Shown here piece after piece: positions 3,292-48,880 of a DNA stretch of 48,898 nt. This DNA comes from Actinomycetes bacterium (GTDB lineage: Bacteria > Actinomycetota > Acidimicrobiia > Acidimicrobiales > Bog-793). A program made the translations under genes and the position numbers. Below the pieces are notes generated by a model. That model was not told where the DNA came from, ran no database searches, and saw nothing but the letters and a program-made list of their open reading frames with translations. Numbering within the stretch: position 1 is the first letter of the stretch; each line of letters starts with the position of its first letter. The stretch is from contig JAJZKA010000006.1 of NCBI GenBank assembly GCA_021809805.1, positions 1-48,898 of the forward strand, in the 5' to 3' direction.

Positions 3292-5388
3292 GTGGTGCAC
3301 GAAGACCAATCCGCAACCGAGCCCACGAGCCAGCCTCAGCTGCACGAGCTTGTGGCGACGGTCTGCGCACCCGCGTTGTGCCTGTCCGCGACCGATGGAC
3401 AGATCCGCCATGACGGTGCACAGGGCCTGTACATCGACGACGTTCGTGTGTTGAGCGCACTCGAAGTCTCGATTGACGGGGTTGCCCCCACCCCACTCGG
3501 CCATGACCTTGTCGGCGGAAACCAGGGCCGCTTCCGGGCCGCAGCGTTCAACGTCGGAAGAGAAGGAGCCGATCCCCGGGTTTTTGTCGACCGAGACCGG
3601 CTCCTGCACGGCCGCGGTATGACTGAGTCGATCATCGTTCGCTCGTATGCGGCAGTGCCGCTCCACCTCCGCGTCGAAGTACGCGCGAGCTGCGACCTCG
3701 CCGGGATGGTCGACGTAAAGTCGGGGCGGTTCCCTCCCTCGGTCTGCGCGAGCCAGATGGGCGGTCGCCTCCTGTGGGGCTTCGGTGACGAGACGCGGGT
3801 CGTGCTCGCCACGGCGCCAACTCCCACCCGGATCGTCGCCAGCACAGCGACCCTTTCATGGGACGTTGAGATCGCGGCGCGCGGGGCAATGACCTTCGAG
3901 ATGGCAATCGCGCTCGAGGGCCGTGACCGCCACGTATCGGTCGTCGTCCCGGCCCGCATGGCCCGCCTCGAGAGGCCGTGCGTCGAGGCGGAGGACGAGA
4001 GGATCGAGCGTTTTGTCCAGCGCAGCGTCGCCGACCTCGACGCGCTCCGCTTAAGTCTCGCCGACTGCCCTAACGACGTCTTTCTCGCCGCTGGTGTGCC
4101 ATGGTTCCTCACGCTATTTGGCCGCGACTCGATCTGGGCGGCGCGCATGCTCCTGCCTCTTGGCACAGAGCTTGCCGCCGGTACGTTGCGTACCCTGACA
4201 GCCCGCCAGGGAAAGGTGCGCGATACGCGCACCGGCGAACAGCCGGGCAAGATCCTTCATGAGGTGCGCCGGGAGCGCACCGATCACCGCCTGTGGCGTG
4301 GAGAACACGGCGAGCCTCTCTCGCTGCCTCCCGTGTACTACGGGACCGTCGACGCGACCCCGCTGTGGATCTCCCTCCTGCACGACGCGTGGCGCTGGGG
4401 CATGCCCGAGGCCGAAGTCGCCGGCCTGCTCGAACCCATGCTCGGGTGTCTGCGATGGATCGCCCGGTACGGATGTGTGCAAGACGGATTCGTCAGCTAC
4501 GTCGACGAGTCTGGCAGCGGGCTCACCAACCAGGGCTGGAAAGACTCCCATGATGCCATCCAGTTCCGCGACGGTCGCCTCGCTCGGGCACCGCTCGCGC
4601 TCTGCGAGGTCCAGGGCTACGCGTACGAAGCGATGGCGGCAGGCGCGGCGCTGCTCGACGCTTTCGACCGGCCCGGTGCTGAGGAGTGGCGCGAGCTCGC
4701 CGGCGCGCTGGCCCAAGGATTTCGCAAGTCTTTCTGGGTCCACGACGCGGGCGGTCCATACCCTGCGGTGGCGCTCGACCGCGACGGCGCCGCCGTCGAC
4801 TCGCTCACCTCGAACATCGCTCACCTCCTCGGTACCGGGATCCTTGACGATGCAGAGGAGGAGTTGGTGGCGTCGCGACTCGCCTCGCCGGTGCTCGACT
4901 GTGGGTACGGATTGCGAACCTTGGCGGCGGACTCGGCGGGCTTCAATCCCTTGAGCTACCACTGCGGTTCGGTGTGGGGTCACGACACCGCGATCGCGAT
5001 CCTCGGTCTGGCGCGCAGCGGCGGGTCCACGGCGCGCCGCGCCGCGGTGTCGCTCATCGATGGATTACTCGCCGCCGCGGAAGCTTTTGAATATCGCATG
5101 CCCGAGCTCTATGGAGGCCACGGTCGAGCCTATGGCGGGGACCCGCTTCCCTATCCCGCGTCGTGCCGACCTCAGGCGTGGTCAGCCGCGGCCTCGATCG
5201 CCGTGCTTAGCGCGCTCACGGGCATTCGGCCCGATGTCCCGAACGGCATGGTGCACGTCTCCCCGCTTTCCTCACGCTTGAGCCGCGTCGGCGGCCTCCG
5301 CCTCGGGGGACGCTCGGTTGCTCTCGAGTTCGACGGTGGGACCCCGGCGCTGCTGGGCGCCGATGAAGAGCTCCACGTGGTGCCTTAG
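3292..5388 (+). CDS. Glycogen-debranching / amylo-alpha-1,6-glucosidase-type glycoside hydrolase
   Basis: I prefer the GTG at 3292 (or 3295), which has GAGGAG 6-9 nt upstream, over the track's TTG at 3265. The product is about 698 aa. The N-terminal ~220 residues match the bacterial GDE N-terminal beta domain (LCLSATDGQIRHDGAQGLYIDDVRVLS). The rest is an (alpha/alpha)6-barrel of the amylo-alpha-1,6-glucosidase type, marked by VPWFLTLFGRDSIWAARMLL, YYGTVDATPLWISLL, GLTNQGWKDSHDAI and the C-terminal YHCGSVWGHDTAIAI and CRPQAWSAAA. No signal peptide is seen, so it is probably cytoplasmic. It is divergent from the lacI-sugar ABC operon and shares its operator region. Inference: it trims the imported oligosaccharide. 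Related enzymes act on several alpha-glucans and other sugars, so the exact substrate is open. Confidence 0.85.
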   Translation: MVHEDQSATEPTSQPQLHELVATVCAPALCLSATDGQIRHDGAQGLYIDDVRVLSALEVSIDGVAPTPLGHDLVGGNQGRFRAAAFNVGREGADPRVFVDRDRLLHGRGMTESIIVRSYAAVPLHLRVEVRASCDLAGMVDVKSGRFPPSVCASQMGGRLLWGFGDETRVVLATAPTPTRIVASTATLSWDVEIAARGAMTFEMAIALEGRDRHVSVVVPARMARLERPCVEAEDERIERFVQRSVADLDALRLSLADCPNDVFLAAGVPWFLTLFGRDSIWAARMLLPLGTELAAGTLRTLTARQGKVRDTRTGEQPGKILHEVRRERTDHRLWRGEHGEPLSLPPVYYGTVDATPLWISLLHDAWRWGMPEAEVAGLLEPMLGCLRWIARYGCVQDGFVSYVDESGSGLTNQGWKDSHDAIQFRDGRLARAPLALCEVQGYAYEAMAAGAALLDAFDRPGAEEWRELAGALAQGFRKSFWVHDAGGPYPAVALDRDGAAVDSLTSNIAHLLGTGILDDAEEELVASRLASPVLDCGYGLRTLAADSAGFNPLSYHCGSVWGHDTAIAILGLARSGGSTARRAAVSLIDGLLAAAEAFEYRMPELYGGHGRAYGGDPLPYPASCRPQAWSAAASIAVLSALTGIRPDVPNGMVHVSPLSSRLSRVGGLRLGGRSVALEFDGGTPALLGADEELHVVP

Positions 5389-5465: not shown

Positions 5466-6122
5466 TCAACGCGAAGCGCCGAAGATCATGGCGTTGGTGC
5501 GCCGGCCGAGCTCGACGCCCTCCGCGAGGGAGAGGGCCACCATTGCCGGTGGCACCTCCCTGCCTGAGCGGTCGCCGGCAATCCACGCTTGGGCCTCGCG
5601 CTCGCCGGCGAGGAAGTGGATCCAGCGGCAGAACTGAGCCTGGATCGCTCCGGAGTAGGGCGCGGGCGTTTCGAGGAACGACAGCACGGTGCCGGGCGGA
5701 GAGACGTGGCGCACGCCCTCGCGCGGGTCGATGACCAGGCGCACCACTGATCCCGACACCGGGCAGCGCGACTCGACGCGCGCCGACTGGCCAACGAGCG
5801 CGGGGAGAAAGAGCGTGTCCCAGGCGCACCATGCGCCGCGGCGCTGGTCACCGAACGTGATTTTGTGCCGGCCCGGCTCGCGCTGCAGGCCGAGAAACGC
5901 AGTGATCTCGTCGCCACCGACCGAGGCGGTTGGGAGCGATGCAGCGATCGTGGCGACGCGGTGCGCGGGCATGCCCGTGCTCGCGGCAATCGTCGCAGGC
6001 TCTGCGGGCAAGCCAGCAGCGATCAGGCGGTAGACCGCCCGGCCGACGGCGCGTCCCTCGGCATCGAGGCGCGGAAGCGCCGCGACGACATCGCATGCGA
6101 GTTGCTCGAGGACAGACGCCAT
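5466..6122 (-). CDS. merB: Organomercurial lyase (alkylmercury lyase)
   Basis: The protein is 218 aa, close to the usual MerB length. The active-site pattern of MerB is present. Cys99 and Asp102 lie in GAWCAWDTLFLP, Cys120 in ESRCPVSG, and Cys165 in QFCRWIHFLAG. The spacings match the Cys96/Asp99/Cys117/Cys159 arrangement of the plasmid R831b enzyme (3, 21 and 63-66 residues). MerB cleaves the C-Hg bond and releases Hg(II), which MerA normally reduces. No merA, merR or merT is in the window, so this copy is an orphan and is flanked by unrelated genes. The N-terminal ~80 residues form the winged-helix-like part expected for the family (ATIAASTGMPAHRVATIAASL). Activity as a true lyase is probable but not proven, since the family contains mercury-independent members. 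Confidence 0.85.
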   Translation of the reverse strand: MASVLEQLACDVVAALPRLDAEGRAVGRAVYRLIAAGLPAEPATIAASTGMPAHRVATIAASLPTASVGGDEITAFLGLQREPGRHKITFGDQRRGAWCAWDTLFLPALVGQSARVESRCPVSGSVVRLVIDPREGVRHVSPPGTVLSFLETPAPYSGAIQAQFCRWIHFLAGEREAQAWIAGDRSGREVPPAMVALSLAEGVELGRRTNAMIFGASR

Positions 6123-40049: not shown

Positions 40050-41815
40050 CCGACAATTTGCAGCGTGTTACTCGACTTCCTTCTCGCGCAAGCCGCCGAT
40101 CGCCCGGCGCATCGGCGGCCGGCGATCGCGGCGCTGGTTCAGAACGTGAGCAGAACCCGCGTGGTTCCCAGGTGGTGCCCCTCTTCGTGAGCGCCTTCGC
40201 CAGCACCCCTCAGCACTGCGTGTGCCCGTCGGCCGCGCTCCTGGGCAGCCGGCGAGCGACGGCGGGACGAACCCGCTCGCGAAGGCCCAGGGCGCGCCGT
40301 GCAAGCACAGCCGCCGCGCCCTGGTCCACCGATATCCCCCGCACCCCGGCGCAGTTCGCCTGTCCAAGGACGGACGACCACGCCGGGTTGACGGAGATCA
40401 CCGCGACATCTTCTCGTGCACAACGGCTCGAGAGGACGGCGAAGAACTTGTGGTACGCAAAACTGGAAACAAGTCGCTTGAGCCGCCGCGAGGAGGAGCG
40501 CAGCTGGGCGCGCGCCCGGGTGAAGTCCAGCGTTTCCACGGCGATCGCGGCACCGTGACGACGGGCGACTTCGACGAGGGCCGCGACCGCGACGCCGAGA
40601 CGGTCGCGGTTTTGCTCCGCGGAGCCGGAGAGGTCGAGGGCGATCCGCCCGAAGGAGACCGGGTTCCCGTCCGCCTTCAGGAGAGACCAGGCGAGGTGGT
40701 CGGGGTTGAGGTCGGCGCCAAGAACCAAGGTGGGTTTCGCTTGGGATGTCTTCGGCGGCCGATCGAACGTCGCTTGCACAGACCAGGCGCCGTGGCGCTC
40801 GTCGAAGTGGAAACGGACGCTGACGGGAGAGCTGCAATGAAGACTTGGCGCGGCCTTGGCCGGCGGCCGCGGCACCGGCACCTGCTCGCCGGCGGCAAGC
40901 GCGGCGCTCTGGAGCGCGTAGAGCTCACGCTGACACTCGCGGGTCTGGAGCCTCTCCTTGTGGGCGGCGAAGTCGGGCGACATCGCGCAAGCAAGGGCCC
41001 CCCGATTGTTGACAAAGCCCCCGACAGCGATGCGCACCGACGCCTTTCCATCCGACAGATGCCGCAGAAAAGACCCGGAGCACGATGGCGTCATCTGATC
41101 GATCCTCGGAGACCACGATCCGCGCCGAGTAGTTGCCGGCGGCTCGACTCGCTGTCGCCGTAGAGGACGAAGTTCGCGCTCCGCGCCCGATCGAAGCGTT
41201 CGCGCCACTGCTCGTGGCTCTCATAGCCGCGTGCGAGCGGGTCGTTGCCCGCCATCACCAGTGTCCGCCCGCCGAAAAACACGCGCACGTCGTCGTCTTG
41301 GAGACGCTGTTGGAGCCGCTCGCATCGCGACGCCGGCCGGTCCCGCCGCCTGCGAGCCCGTGGCGCGTTGCGCGCTGACTCGTTCGTCGCATCGCCGTCG
41401 CCAGGCGGTCCTCGACGACGGCGAGATCCTGGCTCGAGCGCTGGAGCGCCAGCTTGGTCGACTCGATCGCTGCGGCCTGGGCGGCCGTCGCGGTCGTGGA
41501 GATCGCGGTCGCTTCGCGCTGCGACCAGCCACGGGCGATCAACTGCGAGCGCACGCCGCCTGCGTGTGCGTCGTGGCGTCCGGCGACGAACCACGGCTCG
41601 CCGAACAGCACGCAGCGGCGGTAGGTCTCGCGCACCGCGGACTGGAACGCCACGCCGTAGGCGTCGAGGAGCTCGAGAGCAGACGCGTCCAGCACCTTGG
41701 CGCCGGATCCCGCGGGAGGCGTCCTTGTCTCTTGACGAAGCGAACGGCGAGACGTGCTCATTTCCCCTTCGTCCGGTGTGTGCCGGATTCCGTCAGTTGG
41801 CGCGCTCAGCGACAC
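40050..41815 (-). mobile_element. tnpB: Decayed IS200/IS605-type TnpB (OrfB) gene
   Basis: Pieces in successive minus-strand frames make up one TnpB-like protein. From 41815: VLDASALELLDAYGVAFQSAVRETYRRCVLFGEPWF...RGWSQREATAISTTATAAQAA. Then frame 2: LQDDDVRVFFGGRTLVMAGNDPL. Then frame 3: GNYSARIVVSEDRSDDAIVL. Then the long frame 40210-41208 with the RuvC parts: LGADLNPDHLAW (first Asp), AVETLDF (Glu) and SVDQGAAAVLARRALGL (third Asp region). After a TGA at 40210 the same frame continues (GVLAKALTKRGTTWEPRG...) to about 40050. At least three frameshifts and a stop make it a pseudogene. No tnpA is adjacent. A guide (omega) RNA, if any, would overlap the 3' end near 40.05-40.2 kb. The perfect stem CGGCGC/GCGCCG at 40041-40054 lies there. 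Confidence 0.75.
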
Positions 41816-41880: not shown

Positions 41881-42096
41881 TCAACGATTGGGCGAGCAGT
41901 TGCTCACCCGTCCTGCGAGCGGGTCGAACCACGCTCCGCGATGGATGTCGGCCTCGGTGATCGGCAGGTAGGCGAGCGCGTCGGACTTCGTAGCGAAGGT
42001 CTGGGGGGCGGCGTGCAGCCGGCCTTCGTGCCAGTAGCTGGCCTGCCAGCGACCGGACGACCTCTTCCGGACCAAACCGAAGTGTCGACGTGCCAT
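41881..42096 (-). pseudogene. Tyrosine-type integrase, N-terminal fragment
   Basis: The fragment is 71 aa from ATG 42096 with AAGGAGG upstream. MARRHFGLVRKRSSGRWQASYWHEGRLHAAPQTFATKSDALAYL is the arm-type DNA-binding domain of phage/ICE integrases, followed by EADIHRGAWFDPLAGRV. The frame then ends in unrelated residues, so the core-binding and catalytic (RHRY) domains are missing. The TnpB relic begins 65 bp downstream, which points to replacement of the integrase body. It marks this stretch as a former integrative element. Confidence 0.8.
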
Positions 42097-42421
42097 CTAG
42101 GCCTCCTTGGGGAAGGCGGTCCTGGTTGCAGCCGCTCGTACGTGGTTACCAGTCAACCCGTGTACGTCGGCGTGTTCCGCACGAAACCTGGTGCGGAAGA
42201 GCCGGACGGAAACTACGGACGATGGCGAGCGGAATGTGAATCAACCAGGTGATTTGGCTGAATTGTGGCGAGACTTGGGACGCCCGAGTCGGTGATCTCG
42301 CTCCGCCCCCTCCGCGCACAGAAGGACGCGACGGAATGACGACCCCTCGTCGTCGCGTAAGCAGCGCCGAACGGCACCTATGGCGTCGAGTCCTGTGCTG
42401 CGGCGCCGCCCTCGACCGGCT
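42097..42421. other. Gap with a perfect hairpin
   Basis: TTCCGCAC (42175-42182) and GTGCGGAA (42191-42198) can form an 8-bp stem. No T-run follows it, so it is not a standard terminator. The place, upstream of the integrase remnant, is where an excisionase gene or attachment site would lie in an intact element. No gene is seen. Confidence 0.45.
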
Positions 42422-44718: not shown

Positions 44719-44937
44719 ATGGCTACCGACCGTGGTTCGTCCGTTCGGACTCGTGTGCAGGCGCATCGGGCGCGGCTTCGCGCGGAGGGGTTGCGCCCAG
44801 TCCAAATCTGGGTGCCCGATGTGCGAGCGCCCCAGTTCGTCGCGGAGGCTCACCGGCAGAGTGCGCTGGTTGCGTCCTCGCCGATGGCGCAGGACGACCA
44901 AGACTTCATCGACGCGCTCTCGGCTGACGAGGAGTGA
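44719..44937 (+). CDS. mazE: MazE-family antitoxin
   Basis: The protein is 72 aa. RVQAHRARLRAEGLRPVQIWVPDVRAPQFVAEAHRQSALVA is the conserved core of the short actinobacterial MazE family. An acidic tail (SPMAQDDQDFIDALSADEE) follows, which should occupy the toxin's RNA-binding groove. It overlaps mazF by 4 nt (GTGA). GAGG sits too close to the ATG to be an ideal ribosome-binding site, so translation may be leaderless. Confidence 0.9.
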   Translation: MATDRGSSVRTRVQAHRARLRAEGLRPVQIWVPDVRAPQFVAEAHRQSALVASSPMAQDDQDFIDALSADEE

Positions 44938-45263
44938 GGCGCGGCGAGGTCTGGACCGCGGCTGCGGGGTCTGGCTACGCCGGCAAGCCTCGGCCGGTCG
45001 TCATCGTCCAGGATGACCGGTTCGACGCGACTGACTCGGTCACAGTCTGCGGGTTCACGACCGACCCCACCGAAGCGCCGCTCTTCCGGCTCCTCGTGGA
45101 AGTGAGTGAGCAGAACGGGCTTAACGAGCCGAGCAGTCTCATGATCGACAAGTTGACGACGGTCCGGCGAGCGAAACTTGGCGAGCGAATCGGCCGCCTC
45201 GCTGATGAAGACATGGTCCGTCTCGATCGAGCCGTCGTCGTCTTCCTCGGACTTGCTGGCTGA
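44934..45263 (+). CDS. mazF: MazF/PemK-family endoribonuclease toxin
   Basis: The protein is 109 aa from GTG 44934. The PemK/MazF fold signatures are RRGEVWTAA at the N-terminus, GKPRPVVIVQDDRFD (with the catalytic-loop Arg), VTVCGFTTDPTEAPLFRLLVE (catalytic Thr/Ser region), and MIDKLTTVRRAKLGERIGRLADEDMVRLDRAVVVFLGL. MazF cleaves mRNA or rRNA at short motifs. It is an intact pair with MazE. Its 3' end from 45196, including non-coding sequence after the stop, is found again at 46385-46469. Confidence 0.92.
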   Translation: MRRGEVWTAAAGSGYAGKPRPVVIVQDDRFDATDSVTVCGFTTDPTEAPLFRLLVEVSEQNGLNEPSSLMIDKLTTVRRAKLGERIGRLADEDMVRLDRAVVVFLGLAG

Positions 45264-45280
45264 GAGTCCCAGGTGGGTCA
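45196..45280. repeat. 85-bp direct repeat, copy 1 (mazF 3' end)
   Basis: By my alignment 79 of 85 positions match 46385-46469, with no gaps. It covers the last 22 codons of mazF, its stop, and about 17 bp beyond it. The two copies flank the AlbA_2-domain gene with a period of 1189 bp. Confidence 0.9.
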
Positions 45281-45295
45281 CGGGGTCGATCAACC

Positions 45296-46372
45296 ATGAG
45301 CTCTCCTGGCGGCGATGAAGATCAGTCGCAGACCGGGCACGCCGTTCCTCATGCTCGGGTTTCCCGTCAGGTGCTCGACGCGCACATCGTCGTCCGGGGC
45401 GAGGGCGATGAGTGGGATTTCAAGGCCACGCTCGGCGACCTGACGAAGGCCGCTTCGCGCGTCAGCCTCGCGAAGGATGCGCTCGCCTTCGCCAACTTGC
45501 CGGAAGGCGGCACCATCATCGTCGGCGTCGCAAACGACTTCACACGGGTGGGGCTGGCTGACGCCGAGCACCTGGACACGACTGTCATTCGACGTGCCGT
45601 TGAGAAGTACATCGACGGCGATTTCGTGGTCGTCGCGGCCGAGCACGTCGTGACTGAAGAGGGAGACGTGCCCAAGCGATACGGCATCGTCCACTTCTCT
45701 CGGCGGTCCCTGCAGCCCGTGATCGCCGCAGAGGACGGGTCGTTTTCAAACGAACGACCGCCGGAGTTCCGAAAGGGAGACATCCTTGTCCGACGTGGCG
45801 CAGCCAGCACCCGCGCCAATACCGCCGATGTTCGTCGGCTGCTGACCAGTGGTGTCGTCAGCCAGGAGCGGATGGACGCGGCAAGGGAGCTGTGGGCATC
45901 AATCGTCGAGCTACGAGAGCTTCTGGGTGGAGTGGAGACTCTCTTCGACATCCTCACGGAGGACGAGTACGGCGACGTGCCCGGAGATGCGAAATTGCGG
46001 GCTTACGTCTCCGAGGCGACCGAATTTGAGATAGCCACCAAGGTGAGTGAGATCGGACGCCGAGTCCGGCTGCTCAGGCCCCTCCTTCCTGACCAGCTCT
46101 ACCTCAGCTATTGGCTCTACGGCGCGTTCGTCGGGCGGGTCCTCCTCAAGGCGGTCCGACAAATACGGGCGGGCGTCTTCAGGTCGTGGGCGGAACGCGA
46201 CGACGGGTCATCGGATGGATATCTGTACGAGATTGCTTCGCGGCTGCTTGGCGCTCCTGAGCTACAGGCGATCTGGACGGGAGGAACCTTCCGCAGCGTC
46301 AAGCCGGCTCTGGACGCTTTTGAACGAGACATCTGCGCGGCAATAAGGGACGTGCTGAGCGGACTTGCCTGA
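45296..46372 (+). CDS. AlbA_2 / Schlafen-like putative DNA-binding protein
   Basis: The protein is 358 aa from ATG 45296. The N-terminal ~150 residues are an AlbA_2 (Schlafen) domain: GEGDEWDFKATLGDLTKAASRVSLAKDALAFANLPEGGTIIVGVAND, then EKYIDGDFVVVAAEHVVTEEG, RYGIVHFSRRSLQPVIAAEDG and FRKGDILVRRGAASTRANTADVRRLL. The rest is helical with no recognised domain (LWASIVELRELLGGVETLFDIL; PLLPDQLYLSYWLYGAFVGRVLLKAVRQIRAG). AlbA_2 proteins bind nucleic acid or nucleotide, and several are linked to phage defence. It is flanked by two copies of the mazF 3' end, so it seems to have arrived as a cassette. The codon use and GC look slightly lower than in neighbouring metabolic genes. Its start has only a weak ribosome-binding site. 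Confidence 0.8.
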   Translation: MSSPGGDEDQSQTGHAVPHARVSRQVLDAHIVVRGEGDEWDFKATLGDLTKAASRVSLAKDALAFANLPEGGTIIVGVANDFTRVGLADAEHLDTTVIRRAVEKYIDGDFVVVAAEHVVTEEGDVPKRYGIVHFSRRSLQPVIAAEDGSFSNERPPEFRKGDILVRRGAASTRANTADVRRLLTSGVVSQERMDAARELWASIVELRELLGGVETLFDILTEDEYGDVPGDAKLRAYVSEATEFEIATKVSEIGRRVRLLRPLLPDQLYLSYWLYGAFVGRVLLKAVRQIRAGVFRSWAERDDGSSDGYLYEIASRLLGAPELQAIWTGGTFRSVKPALDAFERDICAAIRDVLSGLA

Positions 46373-46384
46373 TCCATACACGGC

Positions 46385-46469
46385 GCCTCGCTGATGAAGA
46401 CATGGTCCGTCTCGATCGTGCCGTCGTGGTCTTCCTCCGACTGGTTGGCCGAGAGTCCCAGGTGGGTCA
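46385..46469. repeat. 85-bp direct repeat, copy 2 (diverged mazF 3' end)
   Basis: It encodes RLADEDMVRLDRAVVVFL-like residues in a frame without the rest of mazF, and the stop position reads CGA, so it is only a remnant. Six substitutions separate it from 45196-45280. Confidence 0.9.
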
Positions 46470-46631
46470 TCACCTCAAGTTGCGACTTCCTATTTCACCT
46501 TCATTGACCGCTACTTACTGTTTCCTGTTCCGCCATTTACAAGGCCTTTCTCGCCTGTCATAACTGGCTCTCGTGCTCCCAATGATTGACACCGCTGCAT
46601 CGCCGATGCGTGGAGGTGCGACAGCGCCGTG

Positions 46632-47783
46632 ATGAGTCTCACGACGATGTCGCCCTCTGCCTGGCGCTACTACGTCGAGGAGATCGCGCGCGGTCGCGAG
46701 GACTACTTCGCGAAAGGTGCCGAGCGTTCGGGCCAGTTCTCTGGTCGCGGCGCGGAAGCGCTCGGGATTGCGGGGCACGTGGCCAACGCGGTGACGCTGG
46801 AACGACTCTTCGGACACGGCACCGATCCCCGCGACGGTTCCGCGCTCGGGCGCGGCTTCGATCCCGACAACGAGCGCGCCGTCGCTGGGTTCGCCCTCAC
46901 GTTCTCGCCGCCGAAGAGCGTCTCGGTGCTGTGGGCACTCGCCGACAAATCGGCCTCCGCCGAGGTACTCGCCGCGCACGAGGCAGCGGTCCGCGCGTCG
47001 ATGGGATTCGTCGAAGATCACGCCGCGTTTACCCGACGAGGGCACAACGGTGTACTCCAGGTCGACACTGAAGGACTCCTCGCAGCGAGCTTTCTTCACC
47101 GGACCTCGCGCGCCGCTGACCCGCAGCTCCACACGCACGTCTTCGTCGCCAACAAGGTCCGCGCGGAGGACGGTGCCTGGCTTGCGCTCGACGGACGTGA
47201 GCTGTTCGCCACCCAGAAGGCGACCGGGATGCTCTACAAGGCGGCGCTTCGCACGGAGCTGACCGAACGTCTCGGCTTGTCCTGGTCTGCGGTCGATGAC
47301 GACGGCGCAGCGGAGATCGAGGGTGTACCGCCGCTCCTGCTCGATTACTGGTCCGCGCGTCGTCACGAGCTGAAGGCCCTCGGCGACGAGCTGATCGCGA
47401 ACCGCTCCGCCAAGGTTGGCCGATCGCTCTCGCCGAACGAACGGGCCGAGTGCTTCCAGATCGCCGCCTACCGGACGCGGACCGCGAAGGTCGACGCGGA
47501 CACCCCGACCGAGGAGCTGCGCGGACATTGGCGCGCGGAGGCCGAGGCATGGGGACTCGCGCCCGAGACCTGGACCGCGGACCCTGGAAGGACCCTTAAG
47601 ACGCCGCGCTCGCGACTGCGATTTCTTGGGCGCGATCCGGGCGCGATCGGGCGCGTAATCCCAGGTCGTAAGGAAGACCACCGGTCAGTGACGGTCAAAT
47701 CAAGAAATCGCTTTGACCAGGGAAAACAGAAGATAATTGAGAGAGAGCACCGAGCACAACTCCTCTACCCAGGGAGAATGTGA
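46632..47783 (+). CDS. MobF-type conjugative relaxase, truncated (N-terminal nickase domain only)
   Basis: The start is ATG 46632; the track uses the GTG just before it. The product is about 383 aa, where MobF/TrwC relaxases are usually 900 or more. The TrwC nickase domain is complete in motifs: the N-terminal Tyr pair (AWRYYVEEIARGREDYFAKG), LTFSPPKSVSVLWALAD, and the three-His metal site (FLHRTSRAADPQLHTHVFVANKV). After about residue 310 the family similarity fades (WTADPGRTLKTPRSRL). The C-terminal end is lower in GC and unlike the rest (KSRNRFDQGKQKIIEREHRA). The TraI-type helicase half is missing. Relaxases nick oriT of an ICE or conjugative plasmid, so this is strong evidence of a former conjugative element. 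Confidence 0.85.
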   Translation: MSLTTMSPSAWRYYVEEIARGREDYFAKGAERSGQFSGRGAEALGIAGHVANAVTLERLFGHGTDPRDGSALGRGFDPDNERAVAGFALTFSPPKSVSVLWALADKSASAEVLAAHEAAVRASMGFVEDHAAFTRRGHNGVLQVDTEGLLAASFLHRTSRAADPQLHTHVFVANKVRAEDGAWLALDGRELFATQKATGMLYKAALRTELTERLGLSWSAVDDDGAAEIEGVPPLLLDYWSARRHELKALGDELIANRSAKVGRSLSPNERAECFQIAAYRTRTAKVDADTPTEELRGHWRAEAEAWGLAPETWTADPGRTLKTPRSRLRFLGRDPGAIGRVIPGRKEDHRSVTVKSRNRFDQGKQKIIEREHRAQLLYPGRM

Positions 47784-47834: not shown

Positions 47835-48260
47835 TTACAGCCGACGCAGAACCATGCCGCCGAACTCCACGAGGCCCTTGGCGTTGCGTAGAGCAGCTCG
47901 GAGGTCCTTGCCCGAGACGTAGATGACGCCGTAGTGCGCGGTGTCCTTTAGGTCAAGAAGGCGGTCGAGTTTCGTCGCGGCCTCGTCGCCTCCTGGCTCC
48001 ACTTGGCGAAGCAGGGTCACGGCTGCTTTGTGATCTTGCGAACGAGACCGACGGCCGAGCGCGGCGCAGCAAGCTGCGTCGCACGCGGCGATCCCCGCGA
48101 GGACCGCCAGTGACGCCGAAACGCTCGTCGCTGACTCCACCACGCCGGCTTCGGTCTGAACAAGCTCCGCGACCTCGTAGAACTTCTGTGCCTGCTTGAG
48201 ACGAGTGGCCGCGTCCGCCTTGGTGCAGGCGGCGGTGCGCTGAGGCCTGCGCTGGCTCAT
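47835..48260 (-). CDS. HEPN-domain protein, partner of an MNT nucleotidyltransferase
   Basis: The protein is 141 aa and helical. KADAATRLKQAQKFYEVAELV and SASLAVLAGIAACDAACCAALGRRSRSQDHKAAVTLL carry the HEPN core with an R-x5-H pattern (Arg71-His77), which in HEPN toxins forms the RNase site. The C-terminal helix LKDTAHYGVIYVSGKDLRAALRNAKGLVEF is consistent with it. It overlaps the nucleotidyltransferase gene by 4 nt. In HepT/MntA-type systems the NTase blocks the HEPN RNase, often by AMPylating it near the active site, so this is probably the toxin half. Confidence 0.75.
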   Translation of the reverse strand: MSQRRPQRTAACTKADAATRLKQAQKFYEVAELVQTEAGVVESATSVSASLAVLAGIAACDAACCAALGRRSRSQDHKAAVTLLRQVEPGGDEAATKLDRLLDLKDTAHYGVIYVSGKDLRAALRNAKGLVEFGGMVLRRL

Positions 48261-48880
48261 TGCCGAGCCCTTCTCGACGGTGCCAGGACGTGGGTCTCAG
48301 TGAGGGGAACGGCGTCCTCCCGCAAGGCGACAACGATCGGCTCCCCCCTTTTGATCATCTCGGCGATCTGCTTCGGGGTGGCCTGGATGATGCTGGCGTG
48401 GTTCCCGGACCAGCGGGCGATGGCGCGGGACAGATCATCGACCGCACCGCCCCAACGCGGATCGTCCGGATCGATGTTTGCCGGTCGGACGACGAGCACG
48501 TCGATGTCGGAGTCCGGGGTGCCGTCGCCTCTCGCCGCTGAGCCGAATACCGCTGCCGCCACCGGCGGCACGGGCCATTGCTCGAGGTGCGTTCGTATTC
48601 TCTCGAACAGCCGACCCCGTAGGTTCGACAGCGTGACGGCGGCTTCAGCCGCCACGTGCTCCCGGTTCAGCGTGTAGAGCCTGGCGGGACCGGCCTCGAC
48701 CACATCGACCAGGCCATGGTCGGTCATGCGGTTCAAGATGGCCTGGACACGCCCCTGACTGTGCCCACAGAGCCGTTGCACGTCGCGGCCTGTGAGGGGG
48801 CGGTTGGTGCCCACGAGAACGGCAAGCACGGCGGCGTCGAGCGTCGGCACGACCGCACGGGCCGGGTTCGACAAGTCCAC
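48257..48880 (-). CDS. Winged-helix plus MNT-type nucleotidyltransferase
   Basis: The start is GTG 48880; the product is 207 aa. An N-terminal winged helix-turn-helix (AAVLAVLVGTNRPLTGRDVQRLCGHSQGRVQAILNRMTDHGLVDV...RLYTLN) is followed by a Pol-beta-type nucleotidyltransferase domain. The domain has the GS-x10-D-x-D motif (FGSAARGDGTPDSDIDVLVV; GS 113-114, Asp125, Asp127). It overlaps the downstream HEPN gene by 4 nt. The fused DNA-binding part suggests the protein both neutralises the HEPN partner and regulates the operon. The upstream region lies outside the window. Confidence 0.85.
   Translation of the reverse strand: MDLSNPARAVVPTLDAAVLAVLVGTNRPLTGRDVQRLCGHSQGRVQAILNRMTDHGLVDVVEAGPARLYTLNREHVAAEAAVTLSNLRGRLFERIRTHLEQWPVPPVAAAVFGSAARGDGTPDSDIDVLVVRPANIDPDDPRWGGAVDDLSRAIARWSGNHASIIQATPKQIAEMIKRGEPIVVALREDAVPLTETHVLAPSRRARQ

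What the first reader, a model, noticed from the sequence alone, without database searches (positions are those of the whole stretch)
45196..46469. AlbA_2/Schlafen gene sits between two diverged copies of the mazF 3' end
An 85-bp segment (last 22 codons of mazF plus bases after its stop) recurs downstream of the 358-aa AlbA_2-domain gene, 79/85 identical by my count. The second copy has lost its stop and the rest of mazF. The gene thus looks like a cassette inserted at, or exchanged through, a mazEF locus in a toxin-antitoxin-rich island. Because the copies differ at six sites, they are not a fresh target duplication. They point to recombination between paralogous mazEF loci, with the gene as cargo. 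AlbA_2 proteins with uncharacterised C-termini in such spots are candidates for new defence genes.
Basis: partly seen in the sequence, partly recalled or inferred. Interest (0 to 1): 0.65.

Follow-up and report, generated by a model that had tools for sequence, protein, structure and literature searches.

The report
Schlafen-like gene at a recombination seam
A probable anti-phage gene of the Schlafen type lies directly behind a toxin-antitoxin pair, at a point where two pieces of bacterial DNA have been spliced together through a short stretch of the toxin gene; this looks like ordinary shuffling of mobile DNA, although the gene belongs to a small, undescribed branch of its family.

Summary
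The repeat is real: 86 bp, 80 identical, at 45195-45280 (last 22 mazF codons plus 20 bp) and 46384-46469. These are its only full-length copies in the genome. The 1,103 bp between them hold a single 358-aa gene with a Schlafen AlbA_2 domain. One orthologous locus (L006, another metagenome bin) has the same gene order and both copies, so no empty site was found. It does show a seam: window and L006 differ by 0.5% left of copy 2 and by about 10.6% from just after copy 2 through the relaxase gene, then by 0 of 107 again. Recombination at or next to copy 2 is therefore well supported. That mazF 3' ends are a general cargo port is not: none of 20 other fetched mazEF neighbourhoods has such a repeat, and no other member of the gene's family lies beside mazEF or between such repeats. 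The protein family is rare (5 more members at about 52% identity), sits near other defence genes or in a prophage, keeps the Schlafen nuclease residues and has an unnamed helical C-terminus. Best reading: a single-gene anti-phage RNase carried as cargo of an integrative element, joined by homology-assisted recombination between two mazF alleles.

The parts
44719..44937 (+). mazE-like antitoxin, 72 aa
   Evidence: PF11455 E 7e-26
44934..45263 (+). mazF/PemK toxin, 109 aa, GTG start overlapping mazE
   Evidence: PF02452 E 2e-20
45195..45280 (+). repeat copy 1: mazF 3' end (22 codons) plus 20 bp
45296..46372 (+). 358-aa Schlafen/AlbA_2 protein; AlbA_2 at residues 36-174, helical C-terminus at about 176-358
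   Evidence: PF04326 39.9 bits; family alignments A1/A2; model
46384..46469 (+). repeat copy 2: orphan mazF 3' end, stop lost (TGA to CGA), at the block boundary
46494..46628 (+). native upstream flank of the relaxase gene, shared with other relaxase loci only from about 46492-46494 on
46629..47783 (+). TrwC-type relaxase gene, 3' truncated; about 10.7% different from L006 up to 47537, identical after it
   Evidence: PF08751 E 4e-80
41881..42096 (-). N-terminal fragment of a tyrosine integrase (relic)
   Evidence: 43% identity over 56 aa with the integrase next to the related relaxase in G007; no Pfam match on its own

Best explanation
The locus is a mosaic. The variable region between an integrase (now a relic) and a TrwC relaxase gene of an integrative mobilisable element received a mazE-mazF-AlbA_2 block. 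Its right edge was joined to the relaxase side by homology-assisted recombination in the 3' end of mazF: copy 1 ends the incoming, intact mazF, and copy 2 is the left-over 3' end of another mazF allele that belongs to the relaxase side. The AlbA_2 gene is cargo. The most likely function is a stand-alone anti-phage protein: the Schlafen-type N-domain is an RNase, probably against tRNA, and the helical C-domain senses or gates it. Shown: the repeat, the divergence step at copy 2, the shared relaxase flank that starts after copy 2, the family and its defence contexts, and conserved catalytic-type residues. Inferred: the order of events, the origin of copy 2 from a second allele, the RNase activity, the anti-phage role and the gating.
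For: Window against L006: 21 differences in 4,278 bp left of copy 2, 4/86 in copy 2, 16/159 in the flank, 97/909 in the relaxase, 0/107 beyond; the boundary lies between 46345 and 46419, at or just before copy 2. Copy 2 fits the left-hand rate poorly (p 9e-4). Relaxase differences are mostly third-position (16/7/74; 68 synonymous, 21 non-synonymous codons), so the two relaxase segments diverged as working genes before being spliced in. The two copy-2 sequences share changes against both copy 1s at three sites. Relaxase loci of G007 and G009 share the flank only from 46492-46494 on and carry other material upstream: a DUF433/DUF5615-type pair plus integrase, or an xis-like gene plus integrase. 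Family members are beside CBASS cyclase plus Cap15 (L009), ThsB-TIR/8xMP plus ietAS (L007), and inside a prophage next to terminase on the opposite strand (L066). E36-x4-D41-x-K43 is invariant in 7 sequences with D at 80 or 81, fitting E205/E210/K212/D248 of rat SLFN13 (PMC5862951, PMC8789055). Model matches to Schlafen N-domains head the PDB list (E 0.01).
Against: Only one orthologous locus exists for comparison and it has the same arrangement; no empty or donor locus was found. Copy 2 also fits the right-hand divergence rate only loosely (P 0.04), as expected if the crossover is inside it. A local duplication that later drifted is not excluded. The structure model is weak for the AlbA_2 part (mean pLDDT 53.9), so fold matches are only supportive. 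The second carboxylate is D rather than E. No activity data.
Confidence: 0.5

Rival explanations
1. Local origin: when the AlbA_2 gene entered behind mazF, the mazF 3' end was duplicated in place (staggered repair or illegitimate recombination), and copy 2, being non-coding, drifted. The step in divergence came later from unrelated replacement of the relaxase segment.
For: The 1,103-bp insert is almost exactly one gene. Copy 2 has drifted without coding constraint in the window lineage (stop loss, A to V). The relaxase segment is flanked on both sides by near-identical DNA, as in replacement of that segment alone.
Against: An 86-bp duplication is long for target-site repair. Copy 2 evolves with the relaxase side, not with the AlbA_2 side (4/86). 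Changes at three copy-2 sites are already shared by both genomes.
Confidence: 0.25
2. Integration at an attachment site: the mazF 3' end is the attB of a small integrative unit that restores the 3' end of its target, as many islands do, and the AlbA_2 gene is its cargo.
For: A direct repeat that restores a gene's 3' end, with a diverged second copy, is the usual look of such integration (general knowledge).
Against: No recombinase lies in the 1.1 kb. None of 20 other fetched mazEF neighbourhoods shows it. Family members elsewhere have no flanking repeats or shared flanks.
Confidence: 0.08
3. Assembly artefact: a short-read assembler joined two contigs through a mazF 3' end.
For: The close data are metagenome bins, and some contigs end in this region (L006 at 47644; L011 starts at 45339).
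Against: The same junctions, to the base, occur in L006, a separate assembly with about 10% divergent DNA next to them. The genome has no second mazF of this type that could be collapsed.
Confidence: 0.04
4. The AlbA_2 protein is a DNA-binding regulator or a third member of the MazEF operon rather than a stand-alone defence RNase.
For: Same strand, 32 bp behind mazF, no promoter- or terminator-like site between them. Not all Schlafen proteins cleave RNA: no activity was seen for SLFN5 (PMC8789055).
Against: All five other distinct members lack mazEF. The catalytic-type residues are invariant.
Confidence: 0.13

Closest known systems
Schlafen N-domain RNases (SLFN13, SLFN11) and PF04326 SLFN_AlbA_2 proteins
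   Same: AlbA_2 domain above the Pfam cut-off; E-x4-(E/D)-x-K and a later D in register with E205/E210/K212/D248; GG motif
   Different: 358 aa, no helicase part; D in place of the second E; a helical C-terminus of about 180 aa without a named family
Bacterial Schlafens in anti-phage defence (Taboada et al. 2025 preprint, cited in PMC12839542; preprint not held or read) and Schlafen-histidine kinase-wHTH proteins beside BREX (PMC12839542)
   Same: AlbA_2/Schlafen domain in defence-type neighbourhoods
   Different: No histidine-kinase or wHTH part was detected; neighbours are CBASS, TIR/8xMP, ietAS, a prophage or MazEF, not BREX
PADLOC candidate PDC-S50
   Same: Weak match over residues 32-91
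   Different: 15.9 bits, only 58 of 387 profile positions: not a member
Islands inserted at the 3' end of a gene with restoration of that end
   Same: Direct repeat of the gene's 3' end at both edges
   Different: No recombinase in the insert, one gene only, no second example
Cargo regions of integrative mobilisable elements (defence and TA genes beside int/relaxase)
   Same: Int relic - TA genes - AlbA_2 - relaxase layout, with alternative TA cargo at the same place in G007
   Different: The element here is decayed: integrase and relaxase are both truncated

Membership tests
SLFN_AlbA_2 (PF04326) | Pfam score above the gathering cut-off over most of the domain | tested here: met
   39.9 bits against 25.3, profile 1-117 of 118; all six members scanned match
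Schlafen RNase | Three-carboxylate site plus lysine (E205, E210, D248, K212 of rat SLFN13) | tested here: inconclusive
   E36, D41 (for E), K43 invariant; D at 80 or 81 in all. Mapping is by motif spacing, as the model of this part is poor
Schlafen RNase | tRNA/rRNA cleavage | not testable with these tools
   needs an enzyme assay
[quoted passage not shown]
   No Pfam family in the C-terminus and no NCBIfam match when it was searched alone; model is all-helical there
PDC-S50 (PADLOC) | match across the 387-position profile | tested here: not met
   residues 32-91 only, E 0.0013
MazEF toxin-antitoxin | MazE-like plus PemK/MazF pair | tested here: met
   PF11455 and PF02452
Island integrated at a gene's 3' end (att-flanked element) | recombinase inside the repeat-bounded unit | tested here: not met
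   only the AlbA_2 ORF in the 1,103 bp
Island integrated at a gene's 3' end (att-flanked element) | empty site in relatives | tested here: inconclusive
   none found; no locus without the gene but with this flank plus mazF

The most novel reading that the evidence does not exclude
MazEF and the Schlafen protein form one three-gene system, in which loss of MazE control or MazF cleavage switches on the Schlafen RNase; mazF 3' ends serve as repeated exchange points by which such third genes are swapped.
Probability: 0.04. Interest if true: 0.6.

Novelty: new member of a known kind. Interest (0 to 1): 0.3.

Why it matters
It gives a clear small example of how defence cargo is joined to a mobile element: a short run of toxin-gene homology marks the boundary between a nearly identical block and a strongly divergent one. 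It also points to a compact, rare, mainly actinobacterial Schlafen subfamily with a conserved helical C-domain that recurs beside CBASS, TIR/8xMP, ietAS and in a prophage, and is a reasonable candidate for a simple one-gene anti-phage test.

Tried and rejected
Empty-site search with the copy 2/flank DNA in 298 genomes of the order and all 35 held of the family: none. Other mazEF loci with 3'-end repeats: 20 fetched neighbourhoods; two have repeats beside mazEF, but these lie in downstream DNA (a recombinase 3' end in G042; a HicB-like segment in G292) rather than in mazF. Exact 19-mer of the post-stop tail in viral contigs: none. The tail resembles, in antisense, a tRNA nucleotidyltransferase motif in two genomes, but no relative in the family has it: treated as chance. 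Integron-like cassette: no attC-type core was recognised in the repeat by eye; no formal attC model was run. Plasmid and phage collections: no match to the AlbA_2 protein. Structure: model of low confidence; PDB search gave weak Schlafen matches, viral library nothing usable. Rfam: nothing in the window.

Full report
Observation. The window holds an 86-bp direct repeat, 45195-45280 and 46384-46469, 80 of 86 identical. Copy 1 is the last 22 codons of mazF plus 20 bp; copy 2 stands alone 11 bp after the stop of the 358-aa ORF 45296-46372. The genome (3.57 Mb, 210 contigs) has no other full copy. Between the copies is one gene and almost nothing else: 15 bp before its ATG and 11 bp after its stop. 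The gene is 32 bp behind mazF on the same strand, with no terminator-like or sigma-70-like site found between them.

Comparison with an orthologous locus. L006 (contig JAJZMD010000248.1, MAS3.bin166) carries mazE, mazF, the AlbA_2 gene, copy 2 and the relaxase in the same order, with identical junctions. Its copy 2 keeps TGA and differs from copy 1 at 3 sites. The stop loss named in the finding is thus a late change in the window lineage. Differences between window and L006 are 21 in 4,278 bp up to 46383, 4 in 86 in copy 2, 16 in 159 in the flank, 97 in 909 in the relaxase, and 0 in the last 107 bp. The step is highly significant (Fisher p about 6e-59) and falls between 46345 and 46419, that is, at the end of the AlbA_2 gene or in the first 35 bp of copy 2. 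Relaxase differences are mostly synonymous (68 against 21 codons), so the two relaxase alleles diverged under selection and were then brought into otherwise nearly identical surroundings. The direction (block in, or relaxase segment in) cannot be told from one comparison.

The relaxase side. Related relaxase loci in G007 and G009 share the upstream flank with the window only from 46492-46494 on; before that they carry other material, in G007 a DUF433/DUF5615-type toxin-antitoxin pair (DUF5615 by Pfam, DUF433 by eye) and an intact integrase, in G009 an xis-like gene and an integrase (by eye). The window has an integrase N-terminus relic at 41881-42096. The mazEF-AlbA_2 block therefore sits in the variable cargo region between integrase and relaxase of a decayed integrative element, and copy 2 lies within 25 bp of the conserved relaxase flank.

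Is the mazF 3' end a general seam? mazEF of this type occurs in many genomes of the order (28 of 298 with some match). Of 20 neighbourhoods fetched, none has a second mazF 3' end nearby. G042 and G292 have repeats beside mazEF, but in downstream DNA. None of the other five AlbA_2-family loci lies near mazEF, has flanking direct repeats, or shares flanks with the others. The seam is a single case.

The protein. PF04326 is the only family matched. Relatives at about 52% identity are in JA1.bin20, Lentzea, Actinacidiphila, a Solirubrobacterales bin and an IMG/VR prophage. It is rare: 2 of 298 genomes in the order, the window's own included, none besides the window's own in the phylum sample of 397, no match in phage or plasmid records. 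E36-x4-D41-x-K43 and the GG(T) motif are invariant, with D at 80 or 81, in register with the catalytic site of SLFN13 (PMC5862951; PMC8789055). The C-terminus (about 176-358) is conserved, predicted helical and without a named family. The model is poor for the AlbA_2 part (mean pLDDT 53.9), and Schlafen matches in the PDB search are weak but top the list. Neighbours are a CBASS cyclase and Cap15 (L009), ThsB-TIR, 8xMP and ietAS (L007), and a terminase/portal module with the gene on the opposite strand (L066). A bacterial Schlafen role in anti-phage defence is already described (PMC12839542 and the preprint it cites).

Mechanism. Shown: repeat, junctions, divergence step, shared relaxase flank, family and contexts. 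Inferred: that copy 2 is the 3' end of another mazF allele left on the relaxase side when the mazEF-AlbA_2 block was joined by homology-assisted recombination, and that the protein is a phage-triggered RNase gated by its C-domain. A local duplication followed by drift is the main rival.

Verdict.

Noticed in passing
46494-47537 against L021 (G007) and L022 (G009): Relaxase loci of the family share a variable cargo region between integrase/xis and relaxase; G007 carries a DUF433/DUF5615-type TA pair there.
   Followed up: partly
47538-47783: The relaxase gene is cut short; identity to L006 returns to 100% for at least 107 bp just where relaxase homology ends, so a second block boundary lies at about 47538.
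   Followed up: partly
47722-47774 and L011 108-159: A stretch of about 50 bp (GAAAACAGA..TTGAGAGAGAGCA) recurs, 79% alike, in WH2.bin64 right after a cut-off 104-bp fragment of the AlbA_2 gene that is identical to the window; only these two places in five genomes searched. Perhaps the end of an insertion element.
   Followed up: partly
L006:497-1463: About 970 bp absent from the window at 42112; by eye it holds a HicBA-like pair and an xis-like fragment.
   Followed up: no
47835-48880: Nucleotidyltransferase (MNT-type, with winged helix) and HEPN-like pair; the HEPN match is below its cut-off.
   Followed up: no
L054:2573-2864 / 4142-4433 and 3371-3512 / 4553-4704: In G292 mazEF is bracketed by two sets of direct repeats (95.5% over 292 bp, 89% over 152 bp), the longer one with a HicB-like start.
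   Followed up: no
L046:4535-4643 / 5759-5867: In G042 mazEF is bracketed by 109-bp repeats of a serine-recombinase-like 3' end, one copy running into a tRNA-like 3' end.
   Followed up: no
46450-46476: The tail behind mazF resembles in antisense the EVMTHLGL motif of tRNA nucleotidyltransferase genes in G189/G293 (27-30 bp); probably chance.
   Followed up: partly
40210-41208: ORF that looks TnpB-like by eye; no Pfam match.
   Followed up: no
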